Position numbers and translations under genes: made by a program
NCBI RefSeq assembly: GCF_007744075.1
Contig: NZ_CP036266.1
Location: 6,685,248-6,749,247 of the forward strand
Length of the DNA: 64,000 nucleotides
Source: Gimesia chilikensis
GTDB lineage: Bacteria; Planctomycetota; Planctomycetia; Planctomycetales; Planctomycetaceae
Direction of reading: 5' to 3'
Part shown: positions 47,885 to 59,334 of the stretch, piece after piece
Layout of the letters: each line of letters opens with the position of its first letter
Numbering within the stretch: position 1 is the stretch's first letter
The notes under the pieces: model-generated
Told to the model about the DNA's origin: nothing
Databases searched by the model: none
Seen by the model: only the letters and a program-made list of their open reading frames with translations

Positions 47885-48341
47885 GCGATCCTTTTCTTGC
47901 CAGGTGGTTCAGAGTCAGAAGCGTGACACGCTTCCAGTGCACAAGTTCAGGGGAACAATTCGTTATATCTGGATCACTTGAACGAATCTGCTTAACCCAA
48001 CTTCGACAAATCCTGGTGTTGCTTAAAAACAACATTTTCTTCCGCTTCCATTTGACTGCGTTCTATTGTTAAGCGAGCGAGGAAGAAAACTGCTGACGCT
48101 CGTTATTCCGACGGTGCCGAATGGTCCGGGTTTAACGATTGCCTGTTATTTCACTTCTGGTGAACCGGTCTTCTTGATTCGCTCGGAACAGTCAACCAGT
48201 CTCGCTGCCGCTCGCAGAGACTGTCTGAAACCATCCATCAGCCCACTATAGTGCTGAGCGTGATACCAAACCCAAGAAGAATCAGGAAGGGGCGTTTTCA
48301 AGTTTGCCTTGAATCAACGCAGCCTGCGACCCGTTTATCAA
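47885..48341. other. Intergenic region before the hybrid kinase
   Basis: About 455 bases without a credible gene, RNA or strong hairpin. It should hold the kinase promoter. Confidence 0.4.
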
Positions 48342-51300
48342 ATGATGTCCGCCAGAAATTTCTACATAGCTGTTTTGATCACACTTGTGATGTGCGCGCC
48401 ACTTGCGGCTGAAGAAGCCTGCCCAGCGTGTGCTTCCGGACATTGTGCAACTTCCCTGGATGAGAACGCGTTCCAGGCTGAGGGGCCCTTCGTCTTTTTC
48501 TCGAAGCTGTTCGATACCAGTGATTTCCCACAGCGCTGGTATTGCGGAACGTGGTCATCGGATAACGGCTGGTTACACATCATCTCAGATATCGGAATTT
48601 TCGGGGCCTATTTCGCGATTCCCGTGATTCTGCTGTACTACATGTTACAGCGGAAGGACCTGCCTTTTCCCAAAGTAATCTGGTTGTTTGCCGCATTCAT
48701 TCTGTTTTGCGGCCTGGGACACCTGATTGAAGCCGGTATCTTCTGGTGGCCCGTCTATCGCTTCTCAGGTCTGATCAAAGCGTGCACGGCGGTCGTCTCC
48801 TGGATTACCGTGGTGGCGTTGATCAGTCTGGTTCCGGCAGCATTGAACCTGCCTTCTGCTGCGCTGCTGGCCAAAGAACTGCAGAAGAATAAAGACCGTC
48901 TGGAATTTGCATTGGATTCAGGACAGATTGGCATCTGGGAATGGGACCTGAAGCAGAATACCTTTTATGGTGATCAACGCACGCAGGATATCTTCGAGGT
49001 CTATGGGGGAGAGCAGGAGTTTCGCTTCCAGGATTTTCTGAACCTGTTGCATCCTGATGATCGCAGGGGGATCGATGATCAGATCGAAGACTGCATCACC
49101 TCCGGGTGTCCGTTCAATTCGAAGTTTCGGATCATTCATGCTGACGGTAGCATGCACTACATACACGCGGAAGGGAGAGTGACTTACGGAGACGATGGCG
49201 CCCCCGAGCAATTCATCGGAGTCTGCCACGATTTCACGGAGAGTAAACTTCAGGAGAATGCGCTCCTGGAAAGCGAACAGAATTTCCGCAGTACGTTCGA
49301 GCAGATTGCCATCGGCATTGCGCTGGTCGCCCCTGATGGCAGCTGGTTGCGAGTCAATAACGGGCTGTGTGAGATTGTTGGTTACGACAGTGATGAACTG
49401 ATGAAGCTGACGTTCCAGGAGATTACGCACCCGGACGATCTGGCAGCCGACCTGTATAATGTCGAACAACTGTTAGCAGGTAAAATCGACTCCTACTCAA
49501 TGGAAAAGCGGTATCTCCGCAAAGACGGCTCCGAGGTCTGGATTAACCTGACGGTCTGCCTGGTACGACATCCTACGGGAGAACCCAAGCACTTCATCTC
49601 TGTCGTCGAAAACATTCAGGAACGCAAAGACGCGGCTGAGGAACTGAAACAGTACCACGATCAGGTCGAAAAACTGTCACTGGTAGCCAGCAAGACACAG
49701 CACTCGGTGATTATTTCCGACGCCCAGGGGCGGATTGAGTGGGTGAACAGCGCATTCAGCGAGTTGACCGGATATGAACTGGCAGAAATCGAAGGCAAAA
49801 AACCGGGGGAGATCTTACAGGGCCCAAATACAGACCCGGAAACGACGGCTGTAATGCATGACCATCTGCAACAGCAGAAAAGTGTGGCGGTTGAGATCAT
49901 TAACTATGATCGGCAGCAGCGAGAATACTGGGTGGAAGTCAAAATCGATCCCGTATTCGATGAGGCGGGGACTTTGGTCAATTTCATCGCGACACAGGTT
50001 GATATCACCGCGCGTAAGCAATCGGAGCTGGCATTACGCAAGGCCACCGGTCAGTTCGAGCGGTTACTGACTGCCGACATTTTAGGAATCATGACCTGCC
50101 GGCTGGATGGCAGAATCGAACAGATCAACGATGAACTGCTGCGAATTCTGGGCTACAGCTATGAAGATGCCATCGACAACCAACTCAACTGGCAAGAGTT
50201 AACGCCGCCCGAGTGGGCACCAATGGACCTGGCCGCGATTGAAGAATTGAGCCAGACGGGACATGCCAAACCGTTCGAGAAAGAGTATCTCCGCAAGGAC
50301 GGAACACGAATTCCAGTGGTGATTGGCGTGACCATGCTGGACGAAGCGGATGACCTCTGCCTCTGTTTCGTGCTGGATGTGACATCGCAGAAGGCGACCG
50401 AAGAAAGTCTCAAAATTGCCAAGCAGACTGCCGAGGAGGCGAGTCGGGCGAAGAGTGAATTTCTGGCCAACATGAGCCATGAACTGCGCACGCCTTTGAA
50501 TGGCATTATTGGCATGACTGAGCTGCTGGGCCTGACGAAACTCGATCAAAGACAACACCAGTTTGTGGATGCCTGTCGGACCAGTGGGGAATCACTGCTG
50601 TATCTGATCAACGATATTCTCGACTTTTCCAAGATTGAAGCCGGGAAGCTGGAACTGGACCAGCAGGCCTTTGACCTCGAAAAGCTGATGATCGATACCG
50701 TATCGACCATGGCCTGGCGAGCCGCAGAAAAAGGGCTTGAATTCCCCTATTATGTCGATCCCGCTTCACGGCGTATGCTAAACGGAGACAGCAACCGCCT
50801 GCGTCAGGTTCTGGTGAACCTGATTGGAAATGCGGTCAAGTTTACCGAAGCGGGTGAAGTTGTGGTACGTGTTGAATCGGTACGTACCACTCAGGATCAG
50901 CTCAGGGCGCGATTCTCGATTTCTGATACCGGTATCGGCATTTCGGAAGAGAAAATCGGCCGCCTGTTTCAGTCGTTTTCACAGGCAGATGCCTCGACGA
51001 CGCGAAACTATGGGGGCACCGGACTGGGGCTGGCGATCTCGAAGGAAATAGTAGAGCTGATGGGTGGGACCATCGGTATCGAAAGCGAACCGGGTACCGG
51101 CTCGACATTCTGGTTTGAGATTCCTTTCCAGGTTATCTCAGATAAGACAGAGACATCACCCCAGACTTCCAGTCTGGAGGGTAAACGGGCTCTGATTGCA
51201 GAAGAGAATCAGACCTGGAGACAGATTCTGTGTGAGTACGCGTTGGAGTTAAAGCTGGATGCAGTGGCAGTCAGTACGTTCGCTGAAGTGCAAGAAGCGA

Positions 51301-52418
51301 TCGAAGCCGGTACACAGAACAACGTTGCCTATGATCTGGTGCTGGTGAACTCCGAGCTGGCCGGACCTGATGAGCTGAAGTTATGGAACAGTTCCCGGGA
51401 GGGTCTGCCTCACACCGTGCTGCTGCTCAATTCTCTGGAGGACCAGCTGGATTCAGAGCACAAGCGTGAGGTTGACGCGACGATCTGCAAACCACTGCAT
51501 CGTCGTCAGTTGTTGAGCGTGATCGACGGTGTATTGAACGGCCGAGAGCACGGTGGCCTGAAAACAACGGAGTCTGCAGAGGAATCTCCAAGAAAGGACC
51601 AACCGGTACTCCCGGCGGTCCATGTACTGATTGCAGAAGATCAGAGTATCAACCAGATGTATATGGAAGAGCTGTTCAAAGAACTGGGCTGCACCTGTGA
51701 AACGGCTCTGAACGGACTCGAAACAATTGAAGCGGTCAAACGAAGTCAATTTGACCTGATTCTGATGGATTGTCAGATGCCGGAGATGGATGGTTTTGAA
51801 GCCACGCGACAAATCCGTCAACTGGAGGCAGACGGTATTTTGAGCGGTCACATCCCCATTGTGGCGTTGACCGCGAATGCGGTGAAAGGGGATCGCGAAG
51901 TCTGTCTGCAGGCCGGGATGGATGATTATCTCAGTAAGCCGGTTCAGGTGAATCAGATTCGAGAAGTGTTCGCACGACTGCTAGAACAGAAGCCGGATTC
52001 TTCTGATTCGTCCCGCGCGGATTGTGATCAGAGCAAGCAGAGCCGTGCCGAGTCGCCGATTAACAGTCAGCAGCTCTGGGAACGCTGTTTTAAAAACCTG
52101 GATTTTGCCAACTCATTACTGAACGAACTTGAGGCCGTCGGCCCCGACCGCATCACTGAGATTCAAGAGAATGCCAATCAGAGGAATCTGACAGGAATCG
52201 CGGATGCGGCACATGCGTTAAAGGGGACGGCAGGAATTCTGTGTGCCTCTCCGTTATATGACCTTTCTCTCCAGGTCGAGAAGGCCAGTCAGAATGAGTC
52301 ATACACAGATGATATTAACGAACTGATCAAGCAGGTGGTTGCAGAAATGCAGGAGTGCCTGGACAGCCTGCCTAAACTACGAGAAGAATTTCAATCAATC
52401 AACGAGAACGCGAAATGA
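48342..52418 (+). CDS. Hybrid histidine kinase with ethylene-receptor-like membrane domain
   Basis: A 1358-residue sensor kinase. After a signal-like segment ([14 protein letters not shown]) and a Cys cluster ([10 protein letters not shown]) come three membrane helices that match the ethylene-binding domain of plant ETR1: [31 protein letters not shown] with Cys and His in the CxxxH spacing that binds copper in ETR1 (residues 123 and 127 here), and [18 protein letters not shown]. Four PAS domains follow (about 185-690), then HisKA with phosphoacceptor His713 in [12 protein letters not shown], HATPase, a receiver whose Asp position reads Asn (VLVNSELAG), an intact receiver ([13 protein letters not shown]), and an HPt domain ([10 protein letters not shown]). 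ATG at 48342 is used; a TTG at 48309 adds 11 residues. It overlaps the next gene by four bases. Confidence 0.92.
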
Positions 52419-53497
52419 AGCAAGCATTAGTAATCGACGACGATTCCCTGGCCCGCCTGGCCATTCAAAACACGCTGCTGGAAGGTGGCTACGAGGTGCT
52501 TACAGCCGGTAACGGCCAGGAAGGGCTGGAGCTGTTAAGTCAGAACCAGGTCCAACTGGTGATTTGCGACTGGGAAATGCCGGTCATGAACGGAATCGAG
52601 TTCTGTAAGGCAGTCCGGAACAGCAACCTCAACCGTTACATTTACGTGATCATGCTGACTTCCAACAACCAGTCGGAAGATATCATCAGCGGGTTACACG
52701 CAGGCGCCGATGACTACGTGACGAAGCCGTTTCATCCGGGAGAGCTCCTGATGCGGGCGAATGTGGGGCAGCGGATTATTGGCCTGGAAAGTCGTGAAAT
52801 GACGATCTTCGCCCTGGCCAAACTGGCAGAGTCGCGCGATCCGGAAACTGGTGCGCACCTGGAGCGGGTACGTTCCTACTGTCGGGTACTGGCTCTGCAG
52901 TTGCAGAAACAGCCCCGGTATCAGAACCAGGTGGATGACAACTTCATCAACCTGGTCTATGAGACCAGCCCGCTACACGACATCGGCAAAGTTGCGATCC
53001 CCGACAGTGTGCTGTTAAAACCGGGACGCTTGACGGACAGTGAGTACGAACTGATGAAGACACATACGCTGAAAGGCGCGGAAACGTTAGCGGCTGCAGT
53101 GAAGCAGTTCCCGAATGCCCGTTTCCTGCAGATGGCGCATGACATTGCCCTGCATCACCATGAGAGGTTTGACGGTGATGGTTATCCGTATGGACTGGCC
53201 GGGGAAGCGATTCCGCTGGAAAGCCGGATTGTCGCCGTGGCGGATGTGTATGACGCGCTGACTTCCAAGCGGGTCTACAAAGAGTCTTATTCCCATGAAA
53301 TGGCCGCAGAAATCATTCAGAACGAATCCGGAAGTCATTTCGATCCGGAGATCGTCGCCGCATTTCTGGAAGTGGAAGACGAGTTCATCGAGATCCGAAA
53401 AAATAATGCCGACTGCGAGAACGAGGAAGAAGAAGCCCGCAAACGTTGCGTCACCGCCGAAAAACGGTTGTTACTCTCGCACGGTGCCCTGGCATAG
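52415..53497 (+). CDS. Response regulator with HD-GYP domain
   Basis: A 360-residue response regulator: receiver domain with Asp52 (VICDWEMPVMNG) and Lys in KPFHPGE, then an HD-GYP phosphodiesterase domain that degrades cyclic di-GMP. Metal-binding residues are intact: SPLHDIGKVAIPD (HD) and HHHERFDGDGYPYGL (GYP). A Cys- and Glu-rich tail follows. The ATG overlaps the kinase stop (ATGA), so the kinase and regulator are co-translated and surely a cognate pair. The predicted output is a fall in cyclic di-GMP in response to whatever the kinase senses. Confidence 0.95.
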   Translation: MKQALVIDDDSLARLAIQNTLLEGGYEVLTAGNGQEGLELLSQNQVQLVICDWEMPVMNGIEFCKAVRNSNLNRYIYVIMLTSNNQSEDIISGLHAGADDYVTKPFHPGELLMRANVGQRIIGLESREMTIFALAKLAESRDPETGAHLERVRSYCRVLALQLQKQPRYQNQVDDNFINLVYETSPLHDIGKVAIPDSVLLKPGRLTDSEYELMKTHTLKGAETLAAAVKQFPNARFLQMAHDIALHHHERFDGDGYPYGLAGEAIPLESRIVAVADVYDALTSKRVYKESYSHEMAAEIIQNESGSHFDPEIVAAFLEVEDEFIEIRKNNADCENEEEEARKRCVTAEKRLLLSHGALA

Positions 53498-55581: not shown

Positions 55582-58503
55582 TTAGGGGAGTACAACAGAA
55601 AAGACTGATGTGAACACTATTTCTGTCCCCAGACCAGTCAACAAAGCGAGTTCGATAAGAACTGGCAGATAGCTCGGTTTCCATTTTGCCATAGTTCCTC
55701 CCGTGACTGCAATCATCAATGCCGTCGCCAACCAGTAATTGAGCCAGCTCTGCTCTAACACCAGTACATAACAGCAAAGCAGTACAAAACAACAAACGGC
55801 CAGCCAGATGCGCGGCTTGCTGCTTGAGGGACTATTTACTGACGGTGTTGGGCTGAGAAAGATTCCCTGTACAACGATGATGCTCATCAAAAACAGCGTC
55901 GCCAGAATAATGTAGAAAGGAAAATCAGGCAGTCGAACTGTTGAGCCGGAAACCAGTTCGCTGAATTTCTTCTCACTCTGGCTGATGTGCTCATCTAGTT
56001 TCTCGCCCCGATAAAACACCGGTTCAATCGATAACGCCTGCAAACTTTTCTGCACCGAATCAGATTGCATCGCCTGTTCCAGTACATCTGCCAGCAGATC
56101 AATTCGCTCCTGTGGAGTCCCTTCAGGTGCCCACCAGTAAAACGAGTTACCCACTACGGCATCGATCTGCTGTTCGCGCGCCGTCGCAACCTCCGGCAGA
56201 GCGGATTGCCTCTTGTCAGACAAGACTGCCAAAGCGCGAATCTGCCCGTCTCCCTGATAGGACAGAAATTCTGCCAGCGAAAATATGGTAGCATCGATAT
56301 GGCCACCAATGAGCATGGTGTATCGCTTTTGCCCATCTCCCGATTGCACATAATTAAAATATTCGCCCCCCGATGCCTGTTCTATCTTTTTGGCAGCGAA
56401 ATGGGCGAGGGCCCCGAAATTGGTTCCGAATTGAACTTCACCCGGATGCCTCTCAGAATCATGCAATAGCTCAGCCAGATTTTTGTATGGGGCATTTTTC
56501 TGCACGGCAACCACCAGATTGATCTCTCCCGTCTGCGCAATCGGCTCGAAAGCCTCCGGACCAAAGTTCACTTTTCCGGAGTATTTCGAGGTAATAATCC
56601 CTTCATGATTACAGAGTATTCTGTATCCATTAGGCCGCGCCTGTTTGACATAGCGGCTCCCAATCGTACCACTGCCCCCCGGCTGATTGATGATGACGAC
56701 TGGTTGTTTCAGCAGCTGGTCCTCGGTGATTGACTTTTGAATGATTCTGGCAAACAGGTCCGTGCCACCTCCTGCAGAAAACGGCACGACAGCCTGAATA
56801 GGGCGTTGCGGAAACGGTGTCAGTCCCTGTTGATTCGTAAAGAAGCCGGAATACAAAAAGACGAGCATGCCCATAATCGCCAGCACCGCAGTCGTATGCC
56901 AGACAGGTAAACCGAATCGACTCCAGACTGAGTGAGAAGTATGCTCCCCAGTCTCATTCTCTGTTTCTGACGCAGGGATGCTGCTCGCCTCTTCAGCAGT
57001 ATTGTCTTTTAAGGTTGCTTGTTTGCCGTTCCGTTTTTTTCGAAACTGACGCACGAGCGGCACAAACAGCAATAAGGCTGAGATGACGACAAAGAGTAAA
57101 GAAATGGGGCGGGTGACGATTGGTAGCCAGTTCCCCTGTGATGACATCAGCCCGGCGGACAGATTTTCTTCCGCAATCGGTCCTAAGACGAAACCAATGA
57201 CAAAGGGGGCCAATGGGATGCGGTTTCGCTCTAATACCAGTCCCAACAGCCCGAAACCGAGCATCACCCAGACATCGAACATGCGGTTCGACAGTGCAAA
57301 TGCTCCGGCAATGCAAAAGGTGAGAATAATGGGCAACAAATAAGGGCGTGGGAACCGCACCAGTTTTGCCAGAAAACCGACGGATGCTATCATCACCGCA
57401 AACATGACCAGGTTTGCCAGAAAATAGGTTCCCATAATCGTATGCACGAGTTCGGGATGTTCGCTGAATAATCGCGGCCCCGGTTGCAATCCATGTAGAA
57501 CTAATGCACCGAGCAGAATCGCATCGATCACACTGCCGGGGATACCCATTGCCACGAGTGGAATCAAAGCGCCGCCGACCGTCGCATTATTGGCGGCTTC
57601 GGAAGCAATAATTCCCTCAGCAGAACCGGAACCGAATTGTTCCGGAGTCTTAGAACTGTTTCTGGCGGCGGAATAAGCGGCGATCGAGCCGATGTTGGCA
57701 CCAATGCCGGGAAGAATTCCAATAAATGTTCCAATCAGAGAAGACCGCAACATATTCACCCATTGATTTTTCCAATCTGCGAATGTCAGCCACAGCCCCC
57801 TGTGTGTTACTGAGACGCGCGGAACGTTTTGATCAATATTCGCAATGTCGCGCAGCACCTGATTGATCGCAAACAATCCAATTAAAACGGGCAACAACTT
57901 GAAACCAGCATTGAGCGGAGTGAACCCGAAAGTGAGTCGTACCTCACCAGTGGCTGCGGAAATCCCCGGCATGGCTGCCAATATTCCCAATGTTCCCGAA
58001 AAGAGTGAGCGCGAGAGCGATGCGCCATCAATGGTCGCGATCAACACCAGAGCCATCATTACCAGCGAGAAATATTCGAAAGGCCCCAGCTGTGTTGACC
58101 AGCGGGCAATCGGTGCAGATAAGGAGATTAAAAACACACAGGAAATTAAACCACCCACCAGGGAGGCATAAATCCCCAGCCCCAGCGCACGGCCGGGCTG
58201 CCCCTGTTGCGTCATGGGGTAACCATCAAGCGTTGTCATCACAGAGGCAGGCGTGCCGGGCATTCGCAGGAGTGTGCCGGTAATCAATCCACCACTGATG
58301 GATCCCACATACATACTCACTAACAAAGTCATCGCCAGTTGAGGATCGAGCGTAAACGTCAACGGCAACGTGAGTGCGATCAACATGGCACCGGTTAACC
58401 CGGGAATCGCCCCCACGAAAATACCAAGCGATGTTCCCACTACAATCAGCGTCAGGCTGAGAGGTGAAGATAATTGAACAATTGTGTTTTGAATCGCATC
58501 CAT
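55582..58503 (-). CDS. Tripartite tricarboxylate transporter fusion: TctA-TctC-TctB
   Basis: A 973-residue polypeptide that joins all three parts of a TTT transporter. Residues 1-500 are TctA, the large membrane subunit, with duplicated motifs FVGAIPGLTGAMLIALTLPL and IGILPGIGANIGS and GIPGSVIDAILLGAL. After an acidic linker and a membrane helix (about 533-556), residues about 562-855 are a TctC/BUG periplasmic solute-binding domain with VVPFSAGGGTDLFARII, VVIINQPGGSGTIGS and YWWAPEGTPQERI. The last 120 residues are a TctB-like small membrane subunit (FYIILATLFLMSIIVVQG; AVCCFVLLCCYVLV). The usual arrangement is three genes. The binding domain would be tethered on both sides. Start ATG 58503; no clear ribosome site. 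Confidence 0.92.
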   Translation of the reverse strand: MDAIQNTIVQLSSPLSLTLIVVGTSLGIFVGAIPGLTGAMLIALTLPLTFTLDPQLAMTLLVSMYVGSISGGLITGTLLRMPGTPASVMTTLDGYPMTQQGQPGRALGLGIYASLVGGLISCVFLISLSAPIARWSTQLGPFEYFSLVMMALVLIATIDGASLSRSLFSGTLGILAAMPGISAATGEVRLTFGFTPLNAGFKLLPVLIGLFAINQVLRDIANIDQNVPRVSVTHRGLWLTFADWKNQWVNMLRSSLIGTFIGILPGIGANIGSIAAYSAARNSSKTPEQFGSGSAEGIIASEAANNATVGGALIPLVAMGIPGSVIDAILLGALVLHGLQPGPRLFSEHPELVHTIMGTYFLANLVMFAVMIASVGFLAKLVRFPRPYLLPIILTFCIAGAFALSNRMFDVWVMLGFGLLGLVLERNRIPLAPFVIGFVLGPIAEENLSAGLMSSQGNWLPIVTRPISLLFVVISALLLFVPLVRQFRKKRNGKQATLKDNTAEEASSIPASETENETGEHTSHSVWSRFGLPVWHTTAVLAIMGMLVFLYSGFFTNQQGLTPFPQRPIQAVVPFSAGGGTDLFARIIQKSITEDQLLKQPVVIINQPGGSGTIGSRYVKQARPNGYRILCNHEGIITSKYSGKVNFGPEAFEPIAQTGEINLVVAVQKNAPYKNLAELLHDSERHPGEVQFGTNFGALAHFAAKKIEQASGGEYFNYVQSGDGQKRYTMLIGGHIDATIFSLAEFLSYQGDGQIRALAVLSDKRQSALPEVATAREQQIDAVVGNSFYWWAPEGTPQERIDLLADVLEQAMQSDSVQKSLQALSIEPVFYRGEKLDEHISQSEKKFSELVSGSTVRLPDFPFYIILATLFLMSIIVVQGIFLSPTPSVNSPSSSKPRIWLAVCCFVLLCCYVLVLEQSWLNYWLATALMIAVTGGTMAKWKPSYLPVLIELALLTGLGTEIVFTSVFSVVLP

Positions 58504-59334
58504 ATTTTGTACTGGTGCAGAAGTCTGCTTAACCCTTTACTCAACGGAGACAGTCAGAGTTTGAACAAGTAAATACATTCACCGACAATACGCGAGACTA
58601 CGAAGGAGGACTAAGATGAGTTAGTCTTCCCTCGATTTCACCTGACGTTCCATCCTTGTTTTCTGCTATTCAGCCCAGATGGTCCCATAGCATTTTCCTG
58701 ACTCATCATATCTTGAAACCGATAATGAATATCGTGACGTATCAAACCCTTTTCGTAAAGACTTCAACATCAACTGATGCTGGGCGGCGTGTGATACCTG
58801 GAGCTTTATAAGATTCGAACTTCTACATTAACTTGTCGGTAACCCACAGCTTTCGAACTTTTCACTGACAGGTTCACACTGCTGTTTGTCTTATATTTCT
58901 GACAAGATCGCGCGAGTTCTATCTACCCTCGTACAGTGATCTGTTGATTGTCTCTTTTCTTAATCACGTTGACCAGGCCCTTACGATCACGGCAGTAGCC
59001 AACAGTGCAGGATTCCAGGCATGCGATGTTTTTTGTTGCTGGATTGGATGGCACAGCGGCAGTAATGTTGACTCGAGCTTTCCAGATAGTGCGCTGCGAC
59101 CTGCCCCATGGAAAATAACCTTTACCGGGATGGTCTATTTCTATATCCTGCTGGCCTCTCCTCTCCTACTCTAATAACCATCTCTCTGTCTTCTTTAAAT
59201 CTAACCCCACTGTCCGTTTTCGCTCAATCCAGCCAAACATTGTGGTGGAAGATCTATACATCGAACTTCATATCTCGACCGCCTCATGCTCCATTTCCAG
59301 GGCGGTCAAATGGTCTAATTCAACAGGTTTACTA
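58504..59334. other. Divergent intergenic region between TTT fusion and MscS genes
   Basis: About 830 bases. It contains a GGAGG followed by ATG AGT TAG at 58602-58624 (a two-codon frame) and a short inverted repeat GACTAA/TTAGTC around it, but no credible gene. The frame at 58944-59174 looks random. Promoters in both directions are expected here. Confidence 0.4.

What the first reader, a model, noticed from the sequence alone, without database searches (positions are those of the whole stretch)
55582..58503. Single-polypeptide tripartite tricarboxylate transporter (TctA-TctC-TctB)
TTT systems normally use three proteins with a free periplasmic binding protein. Here one open frame of 973 codons contains all three in the order A-C-B, with a membrane helix on each side of the binding domain. 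A doubly tethered binding protein changes how capture and delivery can work. I know of no described case, though I cannot search.
Basis: partly seen in the sequence, partly recalled or inferred. Interest (0 to 1): 0.85.

Follow-up and report, generated by a model that had tools for sequence, protein, structure and literature searches.

The report
One-chain nutrient importer in Gimesia
A bacterium encodes, as one long protein, a nutrient importer that its relatives build from two or three separate proteins, with the part that catches the nutrient joined to the membrane on both sides.

Summary
It is not an artefact: the full frame is in 12 of 17 genomes of the genus (Gimesia by named relatives), and all three parts are under purifying selection. 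The genome has no free-standing tctB or tctC. The TctB part lacks the family's first helix, as in all 31 TctC-TctB frames over the cut-off; a helix in front of TctC stands in its place, so TctC in effect sits inside TctB. Relatives show the likely steps: three genes; a TctC-TctB fusion beside TctA; the same pair with TctA first and mostly overlapping genes (Verrucomicrobiota); one gene (Gimesia). The last two are sister groups (support 100/100). Anchoring of TctC at both ends is thus older than the full fusion. A sulfatase without a visible signal peptide is a frequent neighbour, which hints at sulfated substrates. TctAB and TRAP Q-P fusions are in print; my searches found no paper on a TctC-TctB or three-part TTT fusion. 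New variant of a known kind. Transport, substrate, topology and absence of processing are untested.

The parts
55582..58503 (-). single frame TctA-TctC-TctB, 973 aa plus stop
   Evidence: orthologous full frames in 12 of 17 genomes of the genus
57052..58503 (-). TctA part, residues 1-484 (Pfam match 17-436)
   Evidence: pN/pS 0.10
56902..57051 (-). linker, residues 485-534, basic start, then rich in Ser and Glu; inferred cytoplasmic
   Evidence: fast-changing: pN/pS 0.59 for 485-528; pLDDT under 50 from 495
56839..56901 (-). internal hydrophobic helix, residues 535-555, in the place of TctB helix 1
   Evidence: hydropathy 532-550; modelled helix, low confidence; pN/pS 0.27 for 529-556
55930..56814 (-). 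TctC binding domain, residues 564-858 (Pfam match 585-851)
55585..55923 (-). TctB-like part without the first helix, residues 861-973
   Evidence: TctB profile positions 32-137; four modelled helices
54104..55501 (-). neighbouring sulfatase, 465 aa, CTPSR motif, no visible signal peptide, 80 bases downstream
   Evidence: neighbour in relatives

Best explanation
It is a binding-protein-dependent secondary importer of the TTT family in one chain. SHOWN by sequence: TctA, a linker, a hydrophobic helix, TctC, and a TctB-like part without the first TctB helix. INFERRED topology: the basic TctA tail and the linker are in the cytoplasm, the helix at about 535-555 crosses outward, TctC is in the periplasm, and the TctB helices follow, their basic loops (883-898, 940-942) inside. 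TctC thus fills the place of the loop between TctB helices 1 and 2, and a helix that was once its signal sequence serves as helix 1. INFERRED mechanism: TctC closes on an organic anion, docks on the TctA/TctB face beside it and hands the anion over for ion-driven uptake, as proposed for TTT and TRAP systems, but in cis: one binding domain per translocator, always in reach and never in excess. INFERRED origin: fusion of a tctA-tctCB gene pair with overlapping or abutting ends. The frequent sulfatase neighbour suggests that the anion is a small sulfate ester desulfated in the cell; this is the weakest step.
Against: No expression, topology, transport or ligand data. The TctB match only just reaches the cut-off, and one orthologue, G106, shows none. 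The internal helix is modelled with low confidence. 10 of the 12 orthologous frames have some start codon at residues 485-539, 8 of them at 498, so separate translation is not excluded in those strains; neither these sites nor the gene's own start has a ribosome-binding site by my simple pattern. The 2018 review counts four TctB membrane segments (PMC5812351, passage), whereas here four helices remain after loss of the first, so the pair 899-939 may be a hairpin and the side of the C-terminus is unsure. The sulfatase is absent beside many relatives.
Confidence: 0.68

Rival explanations
1. Two chains in the cell: the protein is cut at the internal signal-like helix, or in some strains TctC-TctB is also translated from an internal start, so that the working importer is TctA plus a separate TctC-TctB.
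For: The internal helix corresponds to the signal sequence of two-gene relatives, many of which have a lipobox. 10 of 12 orthologous frames have a start codon at residues 485-539, 8 of them at 498.
Against: No lipobox and no conserved small residues at -3/-1 after the helix in the 9 fused rows (judged by eye). The window frame and L033 have no start codon in that stretch. The sister TctA-first group also has a signal-like helix without a lipobox.
Confidence: 0.15
2. The chain is mainly a sensor or regulator: the tethered TctC reports ligand binding through the membrane part and transport is secondary or lost.
For: Sensor-kinase and response-regulator genes (48309-53497, plus strand) lie beyond the sulfatase.
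Against: TctA, the translocator, is the most constrained part, pN/pS 0.10. The frequent neighbour in relatives is an enzyme, not a regulator.
Confidence: 0.06
3. Frameshift, misassembly or decaying gene fusion.
For: A merged TctC-TctA frame of another organism (P0025) looks like a sequencing error, judged by eye, so such errors do occur in this family.
Against: 12 of 12 orthologous frames are open, purifying selection on all parts; 9 of the 12 genomes are single contigs.
Confidence: 0.01

Closest known systems
Canonical TTT system TctA, TctB, TctC (TC 2.A.80)
   Same: All three homologous parts are present.
   Different: One chain in the order A-C-B; no separate binding protein; TctB without its first helix.
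TctAB fusions (rare, PMC5812351 passage; example P0041)
   Same: TctA followed by TctB in one chain.
   Different: No TctC; TctB matched from profile position 2, so with the first helix.
TctC-TctB fusion beside TctA in Planctomycetota and Verrucomicrobiota (found here)
   Same: TctC joined to a TctB without the first helix; same family of proteins; often the same sulfatase neighbour.
   Different: TctA is a separate protein; gene order mostly tctCB-tctA; many have a lipobox.
TRAP Q-P fusions (PMC8276074, passage)
   Same: Binding protein fused to the small membrane subunit.
   Different: Different, unrelated family; large subunit separate; not examined here.
TAXI-GltS fusions (PMC12344293, passages)
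   Same: Binding protein tied in one chain to a secondary carrier.
   Different: Other binding-protein and carrier families; binding domain N-terminal, no small membrane subunit.
ABC importers with fused binding domains (GlnPQ, OpuA; PMC8025302, PMC11065425 and PMC2861598, listings with the start of the abstracts)
   Same: Works like: binding domain covalently tied to the translocator.
   Different: ATP-driven and not homologous in the membrane part (recalled).

Membership tests
Tripartite tricarboxylate transporter (TTT) | TctA homology (PF01970) | tested here: met
   471.5 bits, cut-off 28.9
Tripartite tricarboxylate transporter (TTT) | TctC homology (PF03401) | tested here: met
Tripartite tricarboxylate transporter (TTT) | TctB homology (PF07331) | tested here: met
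   Just met: 28.8 bits, 29.1 with neighbours, cut-off 29.1; positions 32-137 of 137; over the cut-off in 8 of 9 genomes with the gene
Tripartite tricarboxylate transporter (TTT) | Binding protein as a separate soluble or lipid-anchored protein (usual, but not defining: TctAB fusions are counted as TTT in PMC5812351) | tested here: not met
   TctC lies inside the frame and the genome has no free TctC
Tripartite tricarboxylate transporter (TTT) | Ion-driven uptake of organic acids | not testable with these tools
   needs an assay
TRAP transporter | DctM/DctQ and DctP or TAXI homology | tested here: inconclusive
   The Pfam scan at E<=1 lists only TctA and TctC; the fold search was filled by TctC-like matches, so the membrane part was barely compared
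Ordinary TctAB fusion | TctA followed by whole TctB, without TctC | tested here: not met
   TctC lies between, and TctB lacks its first 31 profile positions

The most novel reading that the evidence does not exclude
An SBP-dependent secondary importer whose translocator, accessory subunit and binding protein are one chain, with the binding domain nested inside the accessory subunit: delivery is obligately in cis, one binding domain per translocator, and TctB is in essence the docking anchor of the binding protein. The Verrucomicrobiota group in which only one helix is left behind TctC would be the same idea taken further.
Probability: 0.5. Interest if true: 0.75.

Novelty: new variant of a known kind. 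Interest (0 to 1): 0.6.

Why it matters
The function of TctB is given as unknown in the 2018 review (PMC5812351, passage), and no TctA or TctB chain in the PDB matched this protein by sequence. A natural single chain with a fixed 1:1 ratio is a ready construct for structure and reconstitution, and it lets one ask whether such an importer needs an excess of free binding protein. The series three genes, two genes, swapped and mostly overlapping genes, one gene, with the first TctB helix gone once TctC is fused, ties TctB to TctC and gives intermediates to test.

Tried and rejected
Frameshift or misassembly: rejected. Separate translation of TctC-TctB: excluded only for the window frame and L033, which have no ATG, GTG or TTG in frame at residues 485-539; 10 of 12 frames have one, 8 of them at residue 498, so I keep it as part of a rival. 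A free partner elsewhere in the genome: none found. Other three-part frames: the region search returned only the 12 known clusters from 8000 candidates of allowed length, and none of 80 named loci has TctA and TctC in one frame; both searches depend on short words or patterns, so far relatives could be missed. Plasmids: 1008 records match; the 10 listed name separate genes, the other 998 were not read. First AlphaFold2 job: poor model, mean pLDDT 58.6; second 75.1. Alignments A1 and A3, and A8 and A10 in part, put TctC-TctB residues on TctA columns (placements of A3, A8 and A10 counted; for A1 judged from the identities); A9 had one bad row; A6 and A7 were not used. Fold search says nothing on TctA or TctB, as TctC matches fill the list. 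A decayed lipobox in the internal helix was considered and dropped: the alignment there is loose and the sister group has none. The P0025 TctC-TctA frame was set aside as a likely sequencing error, by eye. Before the 62-row tree I left out loci without a TctA match over 400 and a TctC match over 220 positions; before the 49-row tree I dropped 13 more rows, long branches or near-copies. TctB matches under the cut-off were left out of the helix count.

Full report

NOT AN ARTEFACT. 12 of 17 genomes of the genus hold the full frame; in a thirteenth (G108) it is cut by a contig end; the other 4 hold only the paralogue. The protein database gives 12 clusters of 972-973 aa at 81-99% identity; those with an organism name are Gimesia. 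In 101 genomes of the family and 392 of the phylum the full frame occurs only in the genus (4 and 9 genomes). Re-read by script, 12 of 12 frames are open; mean pN/pS is 0.10 (TctA), 0.59 (linker 485-528), 0.27 (helix 529-556), 0.23 (TctC) and 0.33 (TctB). The window frame has no ATG, GTG or TTG in frame at residues 485-539, nor has L033; the other 10 of 12 have at least one, 8 of them at residue 498. No such site has a ribosome-binding site by my simple pattern, but neither has the gene's own start, so this does not decide. The genome holds two TctA, two TctC and two TctB places in all: this gene and a paralogous pair, a lipobox TctC-TctB fusion of 459 aa followed by TctA.

TctC SITS INSIDE TctB. 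In the phylum survey 67 TctB matches pass the cut-off. Of the 36 in shorter frames, 35 start at 2-8 and one, near a contig start, at 28. Eight of the 31 are the three-part gene itself and ten are the genus's own paralogue or are close to it, so these are not independent events. In the alignment three of the four stand-alone TctB rows and the TctA-TctB fusion P0041 show a first hydrophobic stretch that the fusions lack (the fourth is aligned with a gap there), while the stretch before helix 2 (GP..FP or GP..IP in stand-alone TctB, LPDFP here) is kept. The helix in front of TctC thus takes the place of TctB helix 1, in two-gene relatives as in the window gene.

HOW IT AROSE. In the family the usual state is tctCB followed by tctA; some genomes also have three separate genes with a lipobox TctC (L129, L131). 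A scan of named genomes with the TctC-TctB alignment gave 80 loci: by my count of the table 41 have TctC with a tail of TctB length, 8 have TctC with one C-terminal helix, and 31 have plain TctC or are cut; the tails were sorted by length, not each by profile. None has TctA and TctC in one frame. By record titles the 41 are Planctomycetota and Verrucomicrobiota, with one Lentisphaerales, two Epulopiscium and one unnamed bacterium; a further fusion is named Vicinamibacterales. In four Verrucomicrobiota loci tctA comes first: the genes overlap by 4 bases in L133, L134 and L142 and lie 4 bases apart in L136; L213, from a genome reached through L165, is a fifth, overlapping by 4. Their TctC-TctB proteins begin with a signal-like helix without a lipobox, judged by eye. 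In a tree of TctA plus TctC, 62 rows, the 5 fused rows are sister to the first four of these (SH-aLRT 100); in a careful tree of 49 rows the same branch has bootstrap 100 and SH-aLRT 100. So the gene order probably changed first and the fusion followed in Gimesia. Transfer of the genes between the two phyla is possible and was not tested.

PARTNER AND SUBSTRATE. 80 bases downstream lies a 465-aa sulfatase with a CTPSR motif and no visible signal peptide (the meaning of the motif, a formylglycine site, is recalled). It follows the fused gene, 92-94% identical, in 3 of 3 Gimesia stretches read, and a relative of 67-70% lies beside 7 of 12 unfused systems of the family (L036-L046 and L051). In the named set 15 of 49 fused or one-helix loci show one of 66-78%, many loci having short flanks and two of the 15 being the same loci as in the family set. 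Before the TctA-first pairs there are sulfatase relatives of 26-35% identity in 4 of 5, two of them with a signal-like start; L136 has none. This suggests import of a small sulfate ester, as a hypothesis only: several of the solved relatives are titled with bound malate, oxoadipate or terephthalate, and no ligand was predicted here.

TOPOLOGY AND MECHANISM. The stretch after the last TctA helix is basic (RQFRKKRNGK), and the loops after 882 and after 939 hold lysine or arginine; by the positive-inside rule (recalled) these lie in the cytoplasm, which puts TctC outside and, if all four TctB helices cross, the C-terminus outside. The review counts four membrane segments in whole TctB (PMC5812351, passage), so 899-939 may be a hairpin instead. 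No lipobox and no conserved small residues at -3/-1 follow the internal helix in the 9 fused rows, judged by eye. Uptake would then run as proposed for TTT and TRAP systems, with the binding domain delivering in cis. The review calls TctAB fusions rare and TctB function unknown. TRAP Q-P fusions are called rarer still than Q-M fusions (PMC8276074, passage). TAXI-GltS fusions are a recent case of a binding protein tied to a secondary carrier (PMC12344293, passages).

NOVELTY. Library searches on TTT and fusions, on TTT and cryo-EM, on TTT in Planctomycetes or Gimesia and on anchored binding proteins gave no paper whose listing or read passages describe a TctC-TctB or three-part TTT fusion. I looked into five papers by passages and read none whole; subscription papers are mostly missing from that library. 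Databases name these proteins by one of their parts. I rate it a new variant of a known kind: known parts, an arrangement not described in what I searched, and a clear path of origin.

Noticed in passing
L156, L157, L159, L160, L164, L165, L171, L173: Verrucomicrobiota loci in which TctC ends in a single hydrophobic helix and TctA follows at once, with no TctB between. Of the 8 genomes 5 have no TctB match, 2 only one below the cut-off, and 1 (that of L165) one over it, in its other, TctA-first system; the genomes' completeness is not given.
   Followed up: partly
L002 40-3015 (G000:C1 about 847600-850600): Paralogous system of the same genome: lipobox TctC-TctB fusion (459 aa) followed by TctA (512 aa), matched in 16 of 17 genomes of the genus at the TctA part and in the other (G108) at the TctC part.
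   Followed up: partly
L208 3411-4778, L209 2581-4116: TctC with a TctB-length tail in Epulopiscium (Bacillota), with a lipobox-like start in L208: perhaps an independent fusion.
   Followed up: no
L043 4850-6727 (G040): The TctA frame there has an in-frame TAG in the match, and the long frame ends in repeats of the kind RQEAGDRKQETGSR.
   Followed up: no
P0027-P0030: TctA proteins of about 620 aa that also carry PF01814 (hemerythrin, name recalled).
   Followed up: no
window 58504-58523: The 20 bases before the ATG are nearly the same in the 12 orthologues (about CATCTGCACCAGTACAAAAT) and show no ribosome-binding site by my simple pattern.
   Followed up: no
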